Shown here in pieces: positions 31,928 to 59,771 of a stretch of DNA of 59,781 nt. The position numbers and the translations under genes were made by a program. Each line of letters starts with the position of its first letter. Within the stretch, counting starts at the first letter, position 1. The stretch spans positions 1 through 59,781 of IMG/VR virus record IMGVR_UViG_3300009419_000837. One strand, written 5' to 3'. Below the pieces are notes generated by a model. That model worked only from the letters and a program-made list of their open reading frames with translations, was not told the DNA's origin and did no database searches. The DNA is from a virus.

Positions 31928-32143
31928 TACTTGCCCTTCTTGTTAACTAGTCCATCATTTTTTTTGTTCATCAAACCTTTTTTAGACATACCCGCCTCAG
32001 ACATTGCTATGGCTACGGCTTGCTTCTTTGACTTAACCACAGGGGCTCTTTGGACCTTTTGGATCTTTTCCAGAATGAAGCGTTCCAGCCTTGTACTCTT
32101 TCATAACTTTTGCGACCTTTTTAGGGCCTTTAGTTGTTGCCAT
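31927..32143 (-). CDS. DUF6496-like small basic protein, read across a +1 shift
   Basis: ATG 32143 overlaps the preceding stop as TAATG. The first frame encodes 36 residues (MATTKGPKKVAKVMKEYKAG, LHSGKDPKGPKSP) and stops at 32033. The +1 frame, entered at AGC CCC TGT (CCC 32044-32042), continues VVKSKKQAVAIAMSEAG and ends at TAA 31929-31927, coupled to the next gene. Both halves together resemble one small basic family (DUF6496-type, KVMKEFK.. and KQAIAIALSEA). Either programmed frameshift or a one-base insertion in the CCCC run. Confidence 0.65.
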
Positions 32144-32682
32144 TAATGTATCTCATTCGCGTAGTCTTGGAACTGTTCATCATTGACCAGTTCATCTGGC
32201 ATTACCTGAATCATACGTACCTTAATAAGGGTACCTCGATCGTCCAAGTAACCGTCTGGCTGTACGCCGTATGGACGGTAGACCTGTTCTTTCCAAACAC
32301 AACGATACCTATTTGCTTCAGAAATCTTAGCCTTGAACGAACCACGCGTTTCAAATAACTCGGGGCTTACTTCTTGTAGGTCATCAATGTTAAGAGTGAA
32401 GTCCAAAGTATCGGCTGCGTAGTAACCGCGCTCGCTTGCCCTGACTTCTCCTTGGTTCCAGTTAGCGCTAATAACGTGAAGGCTCTTTGGACCTTTCCAT
32501 ACACGACCGCCAGAAATAGACTCTACGTCGTATACAGGGTCTAAGTTAATGCTGGTCTTGTCGTACTCCCACCAGTCAGCAAATGTTCCTACAGGGTTTG
32601 TTACATCCCAAGTAATACCGTCGCCAATAGCATTGAGTTCAAATTCAGTGGTAAAACGGCCACCGGGTGCGTGGGCTCTCAT
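32143..32682 (-). CDS. Virion structural protein, connector region
   Basis: 179 residues, beta-rich with many Trp and Tyr residues (ITWDVTNPVGTFADWWEY) and a final acidic helix. It lies between the glycosyltransferase and the neck genes and has GGGGGAG upstream of ATG 32682. No motif known to me; probably a virion component. Confidence 0.5.
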   Translation of the reverse strand: MRAHAPGGRFTTEFELNAIGDGITWDVTNPVGTFADWWEYDKTSINLDPVYDVESISGGRVWKGPKSLHVISANWNQGEVRASERGYYAADTLDFTLNIDDLQEVSPELFETRGSFKAKISEANRYRCVWKEQVYRPYGVQPDGYLDDRGTLIKVRMIQVMPDELVNDEQFQDYANEIH

Positions 32683-32691
32683 GACTCCCCC

Positions 32692-33738
32692 TTAACTCTT
32701 ATAGAACATAAGGTTACGCTGCAATCGCTCATCTGTCGGGTTGAGCTCGACTGCCTTCATCCCGTGCTCAAGAGCAGTAGATGTTTCACCCAAGTTATAC
32801 GCCGATATAGCCGCGTAGTCGTGTGGAGCATAACCCCATGCAAACTCCTCACATAGGTACTCCAAAGGCTTTTCCTTAATCTCTAAGGCTGAGGTTGCGT
32901 AGTGAAAACAGCGCTCCCAATTAGCGTTCTCGTAGTAGTACTGGGCCAAGTCAACCTGTGCCTCTCTACGATCTGGAGCTTCATCTACTGCTTTAAGAAG
33001 CCACGCCTCACGTTCCTGCCCACTAGACATCTTGGCAATGTAGCGCATAGAAGCAGCACGCTCAGGCTTCCACACAGCTCTAGGCAAACTTAAGTGGCGC
33101 TTAAACTCTTCAATAGATTCTTCCACCTTGCCGTAAAAGAAAAGTTCACGGGCGTAGTAAAAAGCGTTTCTGTCATCTGACTGATCTTCTTTAACAGACT
33201 GCGCTAGCAACGGCATGTACTGAGATCTAGGCTTTGTAGGATCTGCGTGATGATGAATCTCTAGTTCAATCCAGTTTTGTATTTCGGCTATGCGGTCAGT
33301 AACCATAACCTCATGGACAGGGTGCTTCCATCGGTAGCCATGTCTAGAGTGAATCTTGTCTCCGCCATATTGTAGACCGGGAGTTCCGTCCTCGTTCCAG
33401 TTCCACGTGTACTTATAGCGTGGTCTGGTTGTTTGTGTTGGTACGGCTTCTAGGGCTTCACGCCATCCCTCAATTAAAACTTCGTCCATATCAAGGGCAA
33501 TACAGTAATCAATATCGTTCGGGATACAAGCAAGAGATGCGTTACGTGCGTCATCAAACCGCCACGGTTTGATTGAGATATCTACTACATTAATCCCAAG
33601 ACTTTTAGCGAGGGCAACAGTGCCATCAGTAGAACCAGTGTCAGCAATAAGTAGGTAGTCAGCTTCTTTAGCAGAGTTGTACCACTTTTCTACGAACTGT
33701 TTTTCGTTTAGGGCAATTGTGTAGACGGCTATTTTCAT
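32692..33738 (-). CDS. Family 2 glycosyltransferase with TPR-like C-terminus
   Basis: 348 residues. The N-terminal 200 show the GT-A fold: AVYTIALNEKQFVEKW, IADTGSTDGT, DDARNASLACI and the ALDMDEV metal motif (DxD). The C-terminal 130 residues form helical pairs like TPRs (AQYYYENANWERCFHYATSA, YNLGETSTALEHGMKAVELN). Such GT2-TPR proteins glycosylate proteins or surface glycans. It lies directly after the collagen-like fibres, which makes those fibres candidate acceptors. No binding site precedes ATG 33738; a TAAACT hexamer lies six bases before it. Confidence 0.85.
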   Translation of the reverse strand: MKIAVYTIALNEKQFVEKWYNSAKEADYLLIADTGSTDGTVALAKSLGINVVDISIKPWRFDDARNASLACIPNDIDYCIALDMDEVLIEGWREALEAVPTQTTRPRYKYTWNWNEDGTPGLQYGGDKIHSRHGYRWKHPVHEVMVTDRIAEIQNWIELEIHHHADPTKPRSQYMPLLAQSVKEDQSDDRNAFYYARELFFYGKVEESIEEFKRHLSLPRAVWKPERAASMRYIAKMSSGQEREAWLLKAVDEAPDRREAQVDLAQYYYENANWERCFHYATSALEIKEKPLEYLCEEFAWGYAPHDYAAISAYNLGETSTALEHGMKAVELNPTDERLQRNLMFYKS

Positions 33739-33744
33739 AGCGTC

Positions 33745-33750
33745 AGTTTA
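33745..33750 (-). promoter_or_regulatory. Candidate -10 element for leaderless glycosyltransferase transcript
   Basis: TAAACT (minus strand) ends six bases before ATG 33738, and no Shine-Dalgarno sequence lies between. This spacing would place transcription start at the start codon, as in actinobacterial leaderless genes. The -35 region is not clear. Confidence 0.4.
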
Positions 33751-33752
33751 GC

Positions 33753-33878
33753 CTATTCGTCGATTGAGTCGGGAGCGACTATGTCGTGCCCAATAACTTC
33801 GCCAGTATCGGCGTTCTTTACCTCAAAAGTTTCAAAGCCACGAGCGTCTACTCCAAGACTTGTCTTAACTACGTTCAT
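33753..33878 (-). CDS. Small acidic hypothetical protein
   Basis: 41 residues from ATG 33878, overlapping the stop of the fibre gene as TAATG and ending TAG 33753. The product begins MNVVKTSLGVDARGF, is beta-rich and acidic, with no motif known to me. Tight coupling to the collagen-like fibre suggests a virion or fibre-related role. Confidence 0.6.
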   Translation of the reverse strand: MNVVKTSLGVDARGFETFEVKNADTGEVIGHDIVAPDSIDE

Positions 33879-35596
33879 TATGAGAACCTCGCCCAATATC
33901 CGTTAGATGTATTAACCAAAGGTACAGCAGATGAAGGCAGAGATGTTTGCGAGTCAAGATAGCCACGCATAACAGGGCTCAACGCGTTCAACGCTGCTGG
34001 TGGGTAACCGAATGCCAGGTAAGCAGTTCCGGGTGTTGTTGCTACAACAAGGATTGCAAATCCATAGCGCTGACCAGCAACAAAGGTTACTGGAGTGGTT
34101 AGGTTACGAGAGTAAACAGTGTTACGTGTTCCAAAGATTGTTGCATCATTTGCTGTTGATGAAAGCAGTGTTGCTGTCGTGTCATCAAAACTGTACACGC
34201 CCATAATAATTGTTGTTGCACCCGTTGTTGCTGTACCAGCAGAGGCAACCGCAACAGAGGTTGCTGTATGAGTGTGCATAGGTGAGAAGAATGTCCAGTA
34301 GACAGTTCCGCTTGTAAATGTTGCAGAACGGTTGTCATAGCGTGGTGCTACATCGATAACCTGATCTGATACTTCAAAGGCTGCTGAGACATGCTCTACA
34401 AGAGCAACAGTTCCGCTAGCATCTTGAATGGTTACAGTTCTATCGGCTGTTGGATCGTCTACGCTCAAAGTAGTTTCAAACGCATTTGCTGTAGCGCCTT
34501 CAAATACAAGACTAGAGCCAAGGTTTAGACCAGTAAATGTTGGAGCAGATAATGTTCCACCTAGAGATACAACGTCTGTTCCGATAGTAATCGAGGAGTT
34601 AGCCAACTTAGCATTAGTAACGTTTGCGTCAACAATCTTCCCAGTTGTTACAGAAAGATCGGCGGGAGTTCTTACATCAGAAAGGCGAGTGTCAGTTCCG
34701 TAAACTACTTGTGATGTAGACGCATCTCCAGTTGCTGGAATGTCCTTAACAGAAGATGTTCCAAGACCAGTTACCTGAGTGTTAGCAATAGAAAGAGTAG
34801 TTTGGTCAATACCCAGTACAGCAGCCGTAGATGTACCAGTATTAGTAACTGGACCAGTAACAGAGATTACGCCTGAAGGACCTGTAGGTCCTGTAGGTCC
34901 TGTAACCATACTGTCCGCACCTGTTGGACCTGTTGCGCCTGTAGGTCCTGTTGGACCTGTTGCTCCAACAATTTGTCCAGCGCTGTACCAAGAGGTACCG
35001 TTCCAAACATACACATCGCCATCTGCATCAACAATGTAAGCATCGTTAACATCATTGCCAGTAGATGGGAGTGAAGCAACATCTGCAACGCTACCAATTA
35101 AAGTAATTGGAACACCTTGCGGACCTGTTGCTCCCGTAGGACCTGTAGGTCCTGTTACTGTTGAATCTGCACCAGTAGGTCCGGTTGGACCAGTAGGTCC
35201 GGTTGGACCTGTGACTGTTGATGGTTCAGTAGAAACTGGACCAGTAGGGCCCGTTGGGCCAGTAGGTCCGGTTGGACCAGTAGCTCCTGTAGGACCAGTA
35301 GGTCCTTGAGGAATTGCAAAATTAAATACAGCTGCAGAAGAAGTTCCAGAGTTAGAAATTGCAGCAGAAGAACCTGGCGCACCAGTTGTTACTGTTCCAA
35401 CAGTTAATGTTGAACTTGGACCAGTAGGCCCTGTTACACCAGAAGAATAAGCAAGTGAGTTCCAAACTTGAGTACCGTTACCGACTTTAAAACGACCAGT
35501 ATCGTACTCGTAGCCAACCTCACCTTGTGAAAGAAGCGGGTTTGCGCTTGCCCAGTTAGCCGCAGTATCGCGTCTGTGTTGAATCTTTACAGCCAT
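33878..35596 (-). CDS. Collagen-like tail fibre protein
   Basis: 572 residues. The N-terminus (HRRDTAANW, LLSQGEVGYEYDTGRFKVGNG) is the short motif found at the start of many tail fibres. Several blocks of Gly-X-Y triplets rich in GPT, GAT and GPQ follow, split by a globular bead (ITLIGSVADV to SWYSAGQIVG, about 165-210). The C-terminal 330 residues are beta-rich and should form the receptor-facing part. Collagen blocks predict a trimeric rod. It is encoded near a prolyl-hydroxylase-like gene and a glycosyltransferase. Confidence 0.85.
   Translation of the reverse strand: MAVKIQHRRDTAANWASANPLLSQGEVGYEYDTGRFKVGNGTQVWNSLAYSSGVTGPTGPSSTLTVGTVTTGAPGSSAAISNSGTSSAAVFNFAIPQGPTGPTGATGPTGPTGPTGPTGPVSTEPSTVTGPTGPTGPTGPTGADSTVTGPTGPTGATGPQGVPITLIGSVADVASLPSTGNDVNDAYIVDADGDVYVWNGTSWYSAGQIVGATGPTGPTGATGPTGADSMVTGPTGPTGPSGVISVTGPVTNTGTSTAAVLGIDQTTLSIANTQVTGLGTSSVKDIPATGDASTSQVVYGTDTRLSDVRTPADLSVTTGKIVDANVTNAKLANSSITIGTDVVSLGGTLSAPTFTGLNLGSSLVFEGATANAFETTLSVDDPTADRTVTIQDASGTVALVEHVSAAFEVSDQVIDVAPRYDNRSATFTSGTVYWTFFSPMHTHTATSVAVASAGTATTGATTIIMGVYSFDDTTATLLSSTANDATIFGTRNTVYSRNLTTPVTFVAGQRYGFAILVVATTPGTAYLAFGYPPAALNALSPVMRGYLDSQTSLPSSAVPLVNTSNGYWARFS
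34877..35310. repeat. Collagen-coding short repeats
   Basis: Degenerate 9- and 18-base repeats (variants of GGACCTGTAGGTCCTGT) encode Gly-Pro-Thr triplets in two blocks on both sides of a unique 150-base segment. They are related to repeats at 35680-35850 and 43376-44900, offering homology for recombination or slippage between fibre genes. Confidence 0.8.
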
Positions 35597-35952
35597 TAAC
35601 CGCTCACATTCCCTGCGTCAATTGTTGGTGCACCACCATAAATTGTAGTTGCTCCACCGCCGTCTATGTTCTGAAAGATAGGACCAGTTGGGCCAGTGCT
35701 TCCAGTCGGACCTGTTGGTCCTGTAGATCCTGTAGGACCAAGAGGACCTGTAGGTCCCTGAGATCCAGTCGGTCCAGTAAATCCTTGGATACCCTGCGGC
35801 CCAGTTGGACCAGTTGGCCCGATCGGTCCTGTAGGACCAGTCTCACCTTGGGCTTCATTGATGCGCCAAACAGAACCATCCCAATACCAAGTTTGGTTAC
35901 CTACTGTGAACAGTTCGTTCAGGGCAGGAGAGTTTGGGAAGTCGATAGGCAT
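35596..35952 (-). CDS. Short collagen-like fibre protein
   Basis: 118 residues: a 35-residue N-terminal part ([20 protein letters not shown]), about 18 Gly-X-Y triplets, and a short tail ([17 protein letters not shown]). Possibly an adaptor or head/neck fibre. Its start has TATACT seven bases upstream and no ribosome binding site; the LexA-like dyad is immediately upstream. Confidence 0.8.
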
Positions 35953-35959
35953 AGCTGTC

Positions 35960-35965
35960 AGTATA
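35960..35965 (-). promoter_or_regulatory. Candidate -10 element for leaderless collagen-like gene
   Basis: TATACT (minus strand) ends seven bases before ATG 35952. GACAGCT between them has no binding-site character. The -35 region would overlap the GAAC-N4-GTTC dyad at 35975-35988, so a repressor bound there would block it. Confidence 0.5.
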
Positions 35966-35974
35966 AAGCATTTG

Positions 35975-35988
35975 AGAACGTATGTTCT
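35975..35988. promoter_or_regulatory. LexA (SOS)-box-like dyad
   Basis: AGAACGTATGTTCT contains GAAC-N4-GTTC with the RNRY centre of Gram-positive and actinobacterial LexA boxes. It lies in the 80-base divergent gap between the short collagen-like gene (minus) and the plus-strand gene at 36033. A GAAC-N4-GTTC match is expected about once per 65 kb by chance; the location is what makes it notable. Confidence 0.45.
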
Positions 35989-36020
35989 TCTAAAAATGAA
36001 GGACTAAGTCACTTGAATGG

Positions 36021-36026
36021 TAGAGT
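36021..36026 (+). promoter_or_regulatory. Candidate -10 element for plus-strand leaderless gene
   Basis: TAGAGT ends six bases before ATG 36033, with no Shine-Dalgarno sequence between. Same arrangement as at three minus-strand genes nearby. Confidence 0.4.
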
Positions 36027-36032
36027 TGTGCC

Positions 36033-36737
36033 ATGAGAAAGCCTTTACCAATATTAAAGTACGAGTCAGCCCATTCCGATATAGATCCTAATATGGTTAG
36101 ACCAGCTAAGGCTACTATCTCAAAATGGTTTAAGGACACCCCAAAGTGGCTTAGCCCATTCCCGCCTAGGTCCGCTCAAGAGGCTGTGCCCACAGTAAAA
36201 ATGTGCACACCTTTTTTAGAGGCTATGGCTTTGGGGTATTTAATCCATTTGCCTATGGACTTGGTTGTTTCCATAGAAAATAATGTTCAGCACCTTTCTT
36301 GGAGAATAGGTGGAGATTTAGTTGGGGTTAGAGAAGAAGATAAAATTTCTTATCTACCTTCTCCAATTGGGTGCTCACCTACGCATTACACGTGGAAGCT
36401 ACCTTTATCTTTTTCAGTCCCTGTAGGGTACAGCGTTCTTTACACTCAACCTTTTAATAGACCAGAACTGCCTTTTGTAACTTTAAGCGGAGTTATAGAC
36501 GGACCTTTTGTCACTTCAGCTGGTGGAAGCATTCCTTTTTATCTTAAAAAAGATTTTGAAGGAGTAATACCGCAAGGAACACCCTTAGCTCAACTAGTTC
36601 CTTTTAAAAACGAAAACTGGGAAGCCAAAGAAACTAAAGGATTAATCCAAGAAGGTGAACAAAACAGTCGTAAAAGTAAAGCTGTTTTATCTGGATGGTA
36701 CAAATCAGCCTATTGGAAGAAAAAATCTTTTAATTAG
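36033..36737 (+). CDS. Conserved phage protein, paralogue of 37372-38085
   Basis: 234 residues on the plus strand. It shares the pattern CxPFxxAMxxGY (CTPFLEAMALGY), THPFNR-like TQPFNRPELPFVTLSGVID, and KDFEGVIPQGTPLAQLVPF with the minus-strand gene at 37372-38085. The family occurs in myoviruses of aquatic bacteria; its function is not known to me. The C-terminus is Lys/Ser-rich. It ends overlapping the oxygenase gene tail-to-tail by 8 bases, and no terminator is visible between them. Confidence 0.75.
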   Translation: MRKPLPILKYESAHSDIDPNMVRPAKATISKWFKDTPKWLSPFPPRSAQEAVPTVKMCTPFLEAMALGYLIHLPMDLVVSIENNVQHLSWRIGGDLVGVREEDKISYLPSPIGCSPTHYTWKLPLSFSVPVGYSVLYTQPFNRPELPFVTLSGVIDGPFVTSAGGSIPFYLKKDFEGVIPQGTPLAQLVPFKNENWEAKETKGLIQEGEQNSRKSKAVLSGWYKSAYWKKKSFN

Positions 36738-37362
36738 GCTTTGGTTGATCGTGTAGCCACGTAACAACCGCGTACTTAGTTCCAGTTTTTACTGGGTGCG
36801 CTATGTGGCGGTACGCGTAACTTGCAGGGAACAACATTAAGGTACCAGCCTTAGGTTTAATTTTTATTCCAAAATTAACAAACTCAATTTCTCCGCCAGT
36901 GTAGTCATCGTTTAAGTACAAAATTGGAGATATAGATCTATGAGTGGCTGTTCCGCCATCGTAGTGGGCTTTATACTCTTGACCTGTTTGGTACTTAAGA
37001 AGGTTAAACTCTTCGACAAAAAATATGGACTCTGTTATACCTAGTGATTCGGTGTATCCATTCACAGCCGAGTAAGTTAGTTCAAAAAATCTATTATTTA
37101 AAATTCGTATGCTTTCATCTACTGGCGCGTAAGTTGAAATTGATAAGTGGCTATTGGTGCGGACATCTTCAGCAATCCTTTCCGTACCCGGAGTTTCTCC
37201 TCTAACACCAGCAGGCTTAAACTTAACTGATGATTCTGGATCAGATGTAACTCTCTCAATTGCATCAATAGTGGCTTGGGGAGAGTCCCAAACATTTTCG
37301 TATGCCGCAATGCAGCCCGCGTACACTGTAGTAGGTTCTATCGAAGAAGGTAGGATGTACAT
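36730..37362 (-). CDS. 2-oxoglutarate/Fe(II) oxygenase, prolyl 4-hydroxylase-like
   Basis: 210 residues with the metal triad and 2OG site: H133 and D135 (AHYDGG), H189 (RHIAHPV) and K196 (GTKYAVVTW). The surrounding pattern SPILYLNDDYTGGEIEF and PKAGTLMLFPA is that of prolyl-4-hydroxylase alpha-like enzymes, which hydroxylate proline in proteins including collagen. Collagen-like Gly-Pro-Thr fibres are encoded on both sides. Homologues are frequent in cyanophages with unknown targets, so the fibre as substrate is inference. ATG 37362 has AAAGGA upstream. Confidence 0.85.
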   Translation of the reverse strand: MYILPSSIEPTTVYAGCIAAYENVWDSPQATIDAIERVTSDPESSVKFKPAGVRGETPGTERIAEDVRTNSHLSISTYAPVDESIRILNNRFFELTYSAVNGYTESLGITESIFFVEEFNLLKYQTGQEYKAHYDGGTATHRSISPILYLNDDYTGGEIEFVNFGIKIKPKAGTLMLFPASYAYRHIAHPVKTGTKYAVVTWLHDQPKPN

Positions 37363-37371
37363 TTTTTTCCT

Positions 37372-38085
37372 TTACTTGTAGGACTTTTTAATCCAAAATT
37401 GTGATTGGTAAGATCGTACTAGTTTTGACATTATCATAAAACGTTCTTTTTCAGACTTCTCAAAAGAAAAAGGTTCTTTAACTTCATGCTCCCAGTTCTG
37501 TCTTATAAAAGGCATAACCTGAGCAATAGGAGTCCCTTTTTCTATAATACCTTCAAAGTTATCTTTAATGTATAGGTTAGCCACCAATGGTCGTATTGAT
37601 GTGTCAGTGTCTATAACCCCAGATAAAGTTAAAAATGGAAGGTCGTATCGGTTAAAAGGATGAGTTACTAAAACGCTAGATCCTTTTGGCGTTTTTATTC
37701 TTGGGTATAGCGCAACTCTCCAAACATCTTTTGCGTAGTTTTCAGGAATAGGTATTCCAGAACTTCTATGCGGAGGAGTATCTATATCAAAAGTTGCACC
37801 ATTTGATCGGTTAACGCCCCAAAAAACATGGGTAGATCCGTTAACTTTTCTAATTTCTATGTCTTGTGGGAGTAGCATCATGTAGCCACTAGTCATAGCA
37901 TCTACAAAAGGCATGCACTTTTTTACAGTAGATCGGTCTCTGGTGCTACCAATATGCTGTTCAATAGGAACTTCTGGTGGTATTTTTTTAAACCAATCTG
38001 GTAAAACTTGATAGGCTGGCTTAGGAGGATCCTCAGTCGCATAAATTTCTGGTGTCGCAGCTATAAACTCAATCTTTTTTGCCAT
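37372..38085 (-). CDS. Conserved phage protein, paralogue of 36033-36737
   Basis: 237 residues with CMPFVDAMTSGYMMLLPQDIEI, THPFNRYDLPFLTLSGVID and KDNFEGIIEKGTPIAQVMPF (quoted in parts), parallel to the plus-strand gene. ATG 38085 is chosen: TATGCT lies six bases upstream and there is no binding site; an in-frame GTG lies at 38100. It is the better match to the family consensus of the two. Function unknown. Confidence 0.75.
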   Translation of the reverse strand: MAKKIEFIAATPEIYATEDPPKPAYQVLPDWFKKIPPEVPIEQHIGSTRDRSTVKKCMPFVDAMTSGYMMLLPQDIEIRKVNGSTHVFWGVNRSNGATFDIDTPPHRSSGIPIPENYAKDVWRVALYPRIKTPKGSSVLVTHPFNRYDLPFLTLSGVIDTDTSIRPLVANLYIKDNFEGIIEKGTPIAQVMPFIRQNWEHEVKEPFSFEKSEKERFMIMSKLVRSYQSQFWIKKSYK

Positions 38086-38091
38086 GAGCAG

Positions 38092-38097
38092 AGCATA
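38092..38097 (-). promoter_or_regulatory. Candidate -10 element for leaderless paralogue gene
   Basis: TATGCT (minus strand) ends six bases before ATG 38085, no Shine-Dalgarno sequence between. Confidence 0.4.
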
Positions 38098-38108
38098 CAC
38101 CTAAAAAA

Positions 38109-43327: not shown

Positions 43328-44971
<1,644 letters not shown>

Positions 44972-58805: not shown

Positions 58806-59771
58806 TTAGGAAATTGTCAGCGCTACTTGCTCTTCGATCCATTTGTAAGTTTTAGTAAGACCTGCTTTGAGGTCCTCATCTACCGACCAACCCATGACTG
58901 ACTTAAACAAAGTGTTGTCTGATGTGCGTGCATGTACACCTATAGGACCGTCGATGTGCTTCTTTGTTAGTTGCTTTCCAGCAATCTCTGAAACGATGTC
59001 TACTAACTCATTGATAGACACATGCTTTTCAGATCCGATGTTGATTGGCTCGAAGAACTTTGCCTCTCTGTAGAACTCCACAGTTGCACGGATGCACTCA
59101 TCTATATACAAGAAAGAGCGGTGCTGGTTGCCGTCTCCCCAAATCTCAATCTCATCTGTAGCCTTTGCTACTTTACGGCAGATAGCCGCTGGAGCCTTTT
59201 CCTTACCGCCGTCCCATGTGCCGTAAGGTCCAAATACGTTGTGGTATCTAGCGATCTTGTTCTTCATCCCGTGGTTCTTGTTGTAGGCAGTGTAGAGGCG
59301 CTCGCTGAATAGCTTCTCCCAGCCGTACTCAGTATCTGGAGATGCTGGGTAAACGGTCTCTTCTTTGCAGTTAATACTGGAAGGATCCATCTGGTTGCAC
59401 TCTGGGTACACGCAGGCAGTAGAGGAGAAGAACACGCTCTTAACGCCAATATCCTGAGCCCTCTTTAGAACGTTTACATTTATAAGAATTGAGTTGCCCA
59501 TGACATCTGCGTCATTATCTCCAGTGTTGATGTAGCCAGCGCCACCCATATCAGCAGCTAGTTGGTACACCTCATCGAACGCCTGATCTAAAGTAGCAGC
59601 GACTACATTGACGTCCCGTAGGTCTCCAATTACAAAGTCATCTGCAAAGGTATCCCAATGCTCTGGGTGCTTTAAGTCCACGCCACGAACCCACATGCCG
59701 TCCTCTTTAAGGCGCTTTACTAAATGGCTTCCAATGAAGCCGCCTGCTCCTAGAACTAATGCTTTTCTCAT
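58806..59771 (-). CDS. GDP-mannose 3,5-epimerase-like SDR epimerase
   Basis: 321 residues, extended SDR: NAD-binding GAGGFIG (8-14), YQLAADMGGAGYI, SSTACVYPE, YGWEK (catalytic Tyr and Lys), YHNVFGPYGTWDGGKEKAPA and WGDGNQHRSFLYIDEC. These segments match GDP-mannose 3,5-epimerase of plants and bacteria closely, which forms GDP-L-galactose or GDP-L-gulose. In a phage it may feed glycosylation of virion or host glycans, together with the glycosyltransferase at 32692. GDP-fucose-type relatives are possible alternatives. The gene's promoter lies off the right edge. Confidence 0.82.
   Translation of the reverse strand: MRKALVLGAGGFIGSHLVKRLKEDGMWVRGVDLKHPEHWDTFADDFVIGDLRDVNVVAATLDQAFDEVYQLAADMGGAGYINTGDNDADVMGNSILINVNVLKRAQDIGVKSVFFSSTACVYPECNQMDPSSINCKEETVYPASPDTEYGWEKLFSERLYTAYNKNHGMKNKIARYHNVFGPYGTWDGGKEKAPAAICRKVAKATDEIEIWGDGNQHRSFLYIDECIRATVEFYREAKFFEPINIGSEKHVSINELVDIVSEIAGKQLTKKHIDGPIGVHARTSDNTLFKSVMGWSVDEDLKAGLTKTYKWIEEQVALTIS

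What the first reader, a model, noticed from the sequence alone, without database searches (positions are those of the whole stretch)
32692..38085. Prolyl hydroxylase, glycosyltransferase and collagen-like fibres in one locus: a possible fibre-modification system
A prolyl-4-hydroxylase-like oxygenase with a complete Fe/2OG site lies within 11 kb of three collagen-like genes rich in Gly-Pro-Thr, and a GT2-TPR glycosyltransferase follows the fibres directly. Animal collagen is hydroxylated on proline and then glycosylated in the same logic. An epimerase for GDP-sugars at the right edge could supply a sugar. Modified fibres could be more stable or escape receptor mimicry or host recognition.
Basis: inference. 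Interest (0 to 1): 0.78.

Follow-up and report, generated by a model that had tools for sequence, protein, structure and literature searches.

The report
Phage enzyme likely glycosylates collagen-like fibres
A freshwater phage carries, right behind its collagen-like tail-fibre genes, a sugar-adding enzyme that is a full-length distant relative of the bacterial enzyme proven to put sugars on threonines of collagen-like spore proteins, while the neighbouring proline-hydroxylase-like gene shows no lasting link to the fibres.

Summary
The genes named are all present. The P4H-like oxygenase has a complete, conserved Fe/2OG site, the glycosyltransferase (GT) directly follows two Gly-Pro-Thr collagen genes, a third collagen gene lies 6 kb away, and the edge gene is a GDP-mannose 3,5-epimerase. 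Comparison splits the proposed system. The GT-collagen half holds: relatives of this GT (phrog_13126) lie within 6 kb of a collagen-like gene in 39 of 60 viral and 22 of 35 cellular clusters, against 2 of 102 random viral loci. Linked collagens carry Thr at position Y (median 0.65-0.71) against 0.11 in an unbiased sample. The predicted fold best matches peptide glycosyltransferases SunS/ThuS. The GT aligns end to end with Clostridioides difficile SgtA, a proven Thr O-GlcNAc transferase for the adjacent GPT collagen BclA3. P4H instead accompanies a Trp-halogenase-like flavoprotein and DUF6065, and the fibres have almost no Y-position proline, the usual collagen P4H site. Best reading: an SgtA-type Thr O-glycosylation pair on phage tail fibres, plus a separate oxygenase cassette. 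Activity and donor sugar are untested.

The parts
32692..33738 (-). GT2 + TPR glycosyltransferase, 348 aa, phrog_13126; proposed fibre Thr O-glycosyltransferase (SgtA-like)
   Evidence: DTGS-D and D-x-D positions invariant among 36 relatives
33878..35596 (-). tail fibre: Mtd_N N-terminal domain, 28 GXY triplets (21 with Thr at Y), C-terminal domain; proposed main acceptor
   Evidence: collagen gene directly upstream of the GT in many relatives
35596..35952 (-). short collagen-like fibre protein, 118 aa, 19 uninterrupted GXY triplets (13 Thr at Y); proposed acceptor
43328..44971 (-). large collagen-like fibre, 547 aa, 105 GXY triplets (70 Thr at Y); possible acceptor, distant from the GT
32143..32682 (-). 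conserved protein of unknown function directly after the GT (9 bp gap); marks the conserved flank of the pair
   Evidence: no Pfam or PHROG match
36730..37362 (-). P4H-like 2OG-Fe(II) oxygenase, complete HxD...H...K site; probably part of a separate cassette
37372..38100 (-). DUF6065/phrog_7084 protein, predicted dUTPase-like fold; recurrent neighbour of the oxygenase
36033..36737 (+). second DUF6065/phrog_7084 paralogue, opposite strand; lacks the second Asp of the xIDxD motif
58806..59771 (-). GDP-mannose 3,5-epimerase at the contig edge; no demonstrated link to the GT
   Evidence: (E=2e-89)

Best explanation
The GT at 32692-33738 is a cytoplasmic protein O-glycosyltransferase that adds a sugar, most likely a hexose or N-acetylhexosamine from a UDP-sugar, to Thr at position Y of the Gly-X-Thr triplets in the collagen-like tail fibres encoded just upstream. 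The TPR half would hold the repetitive chain while the GT-A half modifies successive threonines. Y-position glycosyl-Thr probably stabilises the triple helix without hydroxyproline and coats the fibre shaft. The P4H-like oxygenase belongs to a separate, mobile cassette (with DUF6065 and often a Trp-halogenase-like flavoprotein) inserted in the same fibre island; its substrate is unknown. Shown: gene content, homology, conserved adjacency, Thr bias. Inferred: enzyme activity, acceptor sites, effect on the fibre. Unknown: donor sugar.
For: Collagen-like gene within 6 kb of the GT in 39 of 60 viral GT clusters and 22 of 35 cellular GT clusters (clusters at 80% identity), against 2 of 102 random viral loci. 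In the larger set, 21 of 63 viral and 12 of 35 genome clusters have the collagen gene within 400 bp; in 19 and 8 of these the GT lies just downstream on the same strand. Cellular cases include Dongia, Bacilli, Planctomycetes, Sphingomonadales and Caulobacteraceae. Thr at Y: median 0.65 (viral) and 0.71 (genomes) for collagens within 1 kb of the GT, against 0.11 in an unbiased sample of 124 (p=5e-14 and 2e-6); still p=3e-4 and 2e-3 when GTs are clustered at 65% and 50%. AlphaFold model pLDDT 94.5; best PDB folds are the peptide glycosyltransferases SunS/ThuS (E about 1e-14), then GmaR; profile hits GmaR 9e-9 and SunS 1e-4. SgtA, located by the primer printed in PMC7157674, aligns end to end: 24% over 356 aa, E=1e-24, family HMM E=3e-44, with a GPT collagen gene next to it. 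SgtA is a GT-A + TPR enzyme shown to put beta-O-GlcNAc on Thr of collagen-region peptides.
Against: Identity to SgtA is low. One related phage clade (L114-L127) keeps the GT without any collagen repeat. Among 24 sheath relatives with enough upstream sequence, GT and collagen presence are not clearly linked (9 of 17 versus 2 of 7). Many Thr-rich phage collagens have no GT neighbour: among 74 neighbour proteins of Thr-rich collagens only one matched GT2. Some GT relatives lie among other apparent sugar-transfer genes (L087, L090, L092; by eye), and PHROGs labels the family a beta-1,4-glycosyltransferase, so glycan acceptors remain possible. No experiment.
Confidence: 0.75

Rival explanations
1. 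Animal-like fibre maturation as first proposed: the P4H-like oxygenase hydroxylates proline in the collagen-like fibres and the GT glycosylates the hydroxyproline or the threonine, with the epimerase supplying a sugar.
For: All genes are present in one island; the P4H site is complete and its nearest solved relatives are named prolyl 4-hydroxylases. L100, L412 and L415 also carry P4H, GT and collagen; in L047 a collagen gene lies 15 bp from a cluster of four P4H paralogues.
Against: Collagen within 6 kb of P4H in only 2 of 34 clusters, not above random. Only 2 of 152 window triplets have Pro at Y, the site of collagen P4H; GPT has Pro at X. Most GT-collagen phages and all 35 cellular GT clusters lack P4H nearby.
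Confidence: 0.1
2. The GT modifies host surface glycans or phage DNA (superinfection exclusion or genome protection) and sits beside fibres only because both lie in a host-recognition island.
For: These are the roles usually proposed for phage GTs, for example in Nanopelagicales phages and pelagimyophages (PMC10202952, PMC7029224); a clade keeps the GT without collagen.
Against: The same GT sits beside GXT collagens in bacterial genome assemblies of several phyla; the Thr-at-Y bias marks the linked collagens; fold and sequence relatives act on proteins or peptides.
Confidence: 0.15
3. The oxygenase, DUF6065 and halogenase-like genes form a cassette that modifies a non-collagen tail fibre or a host target. 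This concerns P4H only and is compatible with the best explanation.
For: P4H clusters have a halogenase-like gene (13 of 34), DUF6065 (12 of 34) or another P4H (11 of 34) within 6 kb, none of these families in 102 random loci; L100 carries all three in a row against the structural strand.
Against: No substrate evidence; no halogenase gene was seen in the window; partners differ between phages.
Confidence: 0.4

Closest known systems
C. difficile SgtA - BclA3 (spore collagen glycosylation)
   Same: Single GT-A + C-terminal TPR enzyme of 348 versus 358 aa, full-length sequence homology, adjacent GPT-rich collagen-like surface protein (PMC7157674)
   Different: 24% identity; phage tail-fibre operon rather than spore; GT downstream rather than upstream of the collagen gene; acceptor carries an Mtd_N domain; donor sugar unknown
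SunS / ThuS peptide S-glycosyltransferases and GmaR
   Same: Best structural matches, GT2 catalytic domain acting on peptide or protein acceptors
   Different: Acceptors are a bacteriocin Cys or flagellin (own knowledge); only about 15-20% identity in the structural alignment
Phage virion glycosylation (mycobacteriophages Che8, Rita)
   Same: Phage-encoded GTs thought to decorate the virion's own proteins (PMC11256854, citing Freeman et al. 2023)
   Different: Major capsid protein rather than collagen fibres; GT family not compared here
Animal collagen hydroxylation and glycosylation (C-P4H, LH3)
   Same: Oxygenase of the same superfamily in the window (one search lists LH3 weakly)
   Different: Hyp at Y and sugar on hydroxylysine there; here Thr at Y, almost no Pro at Y, and no conserved P4H-collagen link

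Membership tests
SgtA-type collagen Thr O-glycosyltransferase | GT-A domain followed by TPRs in one protein of about 350 aa | tested here: met
SgtA-type collagen Thr O-glycosyltransferase | End-to-end sequence homology to SgtA with DTGSTD and DxD motifs kept | tested here: met
   blastp E=1e-24 over 356 aa, HMM 3e-44
SgtA-type collagen Thr O-glycosyltransferase | Gene next to a GXT-rich collagen-like gene | tested here: met
SgtA-type collagen Thr O-glycosyltransferase | Transfers GlcNAc from UDP-GlcNAc to Thr of collagen peptides | not testable with these tools
   needs an enzyme assay
Collagen prolyl 4-hydroxylase | 2OG-Fe(II) domain with HxD...H and K/R 2OG ligand | tested here: met
Collagen prolyl 4-hydroxylase | Candidate substrate with Pro at Y (X-Pro-Gly) | tested here: not met
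   2 of 152 window triplets have Pro at Y
Collagen prolyl 4-hydroxylase | Genetic association with collagen-like genes | tested here: not met
   2 of 34 clusters versus 2 of 102 random, p=0.26
Trimeric dUTPase superfamily (for DUF6065) | dUTPase beta-fold | tested here: inconclusive
   Foldseek top hits all dUTPases, E=2e-4, TM 0.73 by target but 0.40 by query
Trimeric dUTPase superfamily (for DUF6065) | Catalytic motifs I-V | tested here: inconclusive
   G-Y...D, xIDxD and GTPxxQ columns conserved; not a full motif set

The most novel reading that the evidence does not exclude
Some phages carry a composite fibre-tailoring island in which the P4H-like oxygenase puts Hyp at X and the SgtA-like GT glycosylates Thr at Y of the same Gly-Pro-Thr triplets, giving doubly modified fibres, perhaps with DUF6065 and halogenase-like partners acting on the same fibres.
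Probability: 0.1. Interest if true: 0.82.

Novelty: new variant of a known kind. Interest (0 to 1): 0.56.

Why it matters
Phage collagen-like fibres are common, yet it is unclear how they form stable triple helices in bacteria without hydroxyproline. A dedicated Thr O-glycosyltransferase travelling with GPT-rich fibres would give a concrete, testable answer, would re-annotate a phage family now filed as a beta-1,4-glycosyltransferase/moron as a virion-modifying enzyme, and would link phage fibres and bacterial collagen-like surface proteins through one enzyme family. The library searched held no paper describing this pairing in phages, though subscription literature was not searched.

Tried and rejected
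P4H as fibre partner: rejected on co-occurrence and on Pro position. Epimerase as sugar supplier: identified as GME but 25 kb away, with no evidence of a link; left open. Generalisation that all Thr-rich phage collagens have a GT neighbour: tested by Pfam on neighbours of Thr-rich versus Thr-poor collagens and not supported. Within-group GT/collagen test on sheath relatives: not significant, underpowered. DUF6065 literature: no paper. DUF6065 profile against PDB sequences: no hit. Promoter/terminator scan of the island: at chance level. Triple-helix stabilisation by galactosyl-Thr in Riftia collagen is from my own knowledge; the paper search found no direct source. Freeman et al. 2023 was not held.

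Full report
What is there. The window is a 59.8-kb linear viral record of a myovirus with sheath, tube, baseplate, capsid, portal and terminase genes, most on the minus strand (gene names of the core by sequence reading). Read in the direction of transcription, the island holds: a large collagen-like fibre (43328-44971), a 1020-aa fibre-like protein, a Gly-rich protein, DUF6065, the P4H-like oxygenase, a second DUF6065 gene on the other strand, a short collagen gene, the Mtd_N-collagen fibre, the GT2-TPR glycosyltransferase and a conserved small protein. The oxygenase has a complete active site: H133, D135 and H186 in 54 of 55 aligned sequences, and K or R at 196 in 54 of 55. The edge gene is a GDP-mannose 3,5-epimerase.

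Testing the oxygenase. Of 58 viral loci found with the oxygenase, uninterrupted collagen runs of 8 or more triplets occurred only in a near-identical phage (L055) and in L047. After clustering at 80% identity and scoring within 6 kb, collagen occurs in 2 of 34 clusters, a Trp-halogenase-like gene in 13, DUF6065 in 12, another P4H in 11 and the GT in 1. In 102 random viral loci, drawn with an arbitrary 14-mer, collagen occurs in 2 and none of the four families at all; P4H versus random for collagen gives p=0.26. An unbiased collagen sample had a P4H hit in 4 of 110 loci, a weak excess at most. In the window's fibres 2 of 152 triplets have Pro at Y, while 78 have Pro at X and 104 Thr at Y, so the usual collagen P4H site (own knowledge: Pro at Y) is almost absent. 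In L100, a close relative, halogenase-like gene, DUF6065 and P4H stand together against the structural strand, which suggests an inserted cassette.

Testing the glycosyltransferase. GT relatives at 61-100% identity usually lie directly downstream of a GPT/GAT collagen gene. A wider scan of viral contigs and of cellular genomes shows the same: 39 of 60 viral and 22 of 35 cellular clusters have collagen within 6 kb, and 11 of 15 cellular clusters with at least 3 kb on both sides do. The linked collagens are strongly Thr-biased at Y. An isolated phage, DSL-LC01, has two collagen genes, a hypothetical gene, a gene annotated Trp halogenase and then the GT. The AlphaFold model is confident and matches SunS/ThuS best; at sequence level the non-TPR relatives are GmaR and SunS/ThuS.

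The known relative. PMC7157674 shows that C. difficile SgtA, a 358-aa GT-A + TPR enzyme encoded immediately upstream of the GPT collagen gene bclA3, adds beta-O-GlcNAc to Thr of collagen-region peptides. Using the primer printed there I found an exact match in a held (unnamed) genome, at the start of a 358-aa GT-A + TPR protein next to a GPT collagen gene. The window GT aligns with it end to end at 24% identity (E=1e-24; family HMM 3e-44), including DTGSTD, ARN, the DxD region and HEV. This makes Thr O-glycosylation of the fibres the best-supported function; the sugar remains unknown.

Limits. A GT-bearing clade has no collagen repeats, Thr-rich collagens often have no GT neighbour, and a small within-group test is not significant. 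Relatives are not fully independent, though the signal persists in coarse clusters and across bacterial phyla. No activity was measured.

Side result. DUF6065/phrog_7084, filed as unknown, is predicted to fold like dUTPase (Foldseek E=2e-4; model pLDDT 84.9) with conserved G-Y...D, xIDxD and GTPxxQ columns, and recurs beside the oxygenase and beside collagen genes.

Noticed in passing
window 37372-38100 (-) and 36033-36737 (+): DUF6065/phrog_7084 proteins are predicted to have a dUTPase-like fold with partly conserved motif-like columns; family of unknown function, no paper found.
   Followed up: partly
L100:938-4591; P4H loci L001-L058: Recurrent phage cassette of P4H-like oxygenase, DUF6065 and Trp-halogenase-like flavoprotein (PF04820), often in or near fibre islands; substrate unknown.
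   Followed up: partly
window 36033-36737: A lone opposite-strand gene inside an otherwise minus-strand structural operon, a diverged paralogue of 37372-38100 lacking the second Asp of xIDxD.
   Followed up: partly
window 58806-59771: GDP-mannose 3,5-epimerase (E=2e-89 to the plant enzyme) at the contig edge of a phage; any neighbouring sugar genes lie beyond the window.
   Followed up: no
L450, L452, L453: Clusters of four or five P4H-like oxygenases directly upstream of the same GT family, with no collagen within 6 kb.
   Followed up: no
L489, L490, L492, L504, L509, L516: Bacterial genome contigs where a homologue of the phage GT lies within about 1 kb of collagen-like genes with mostly 90-100% Thr at Y; candidate cellular collagen glycosylation pairs.
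   Followed up: partly
window 33878-35596: Fibre with an Mtd_N (major tropism determinant N-terminal) domain followed by collagen repeats.
   Followed up: no
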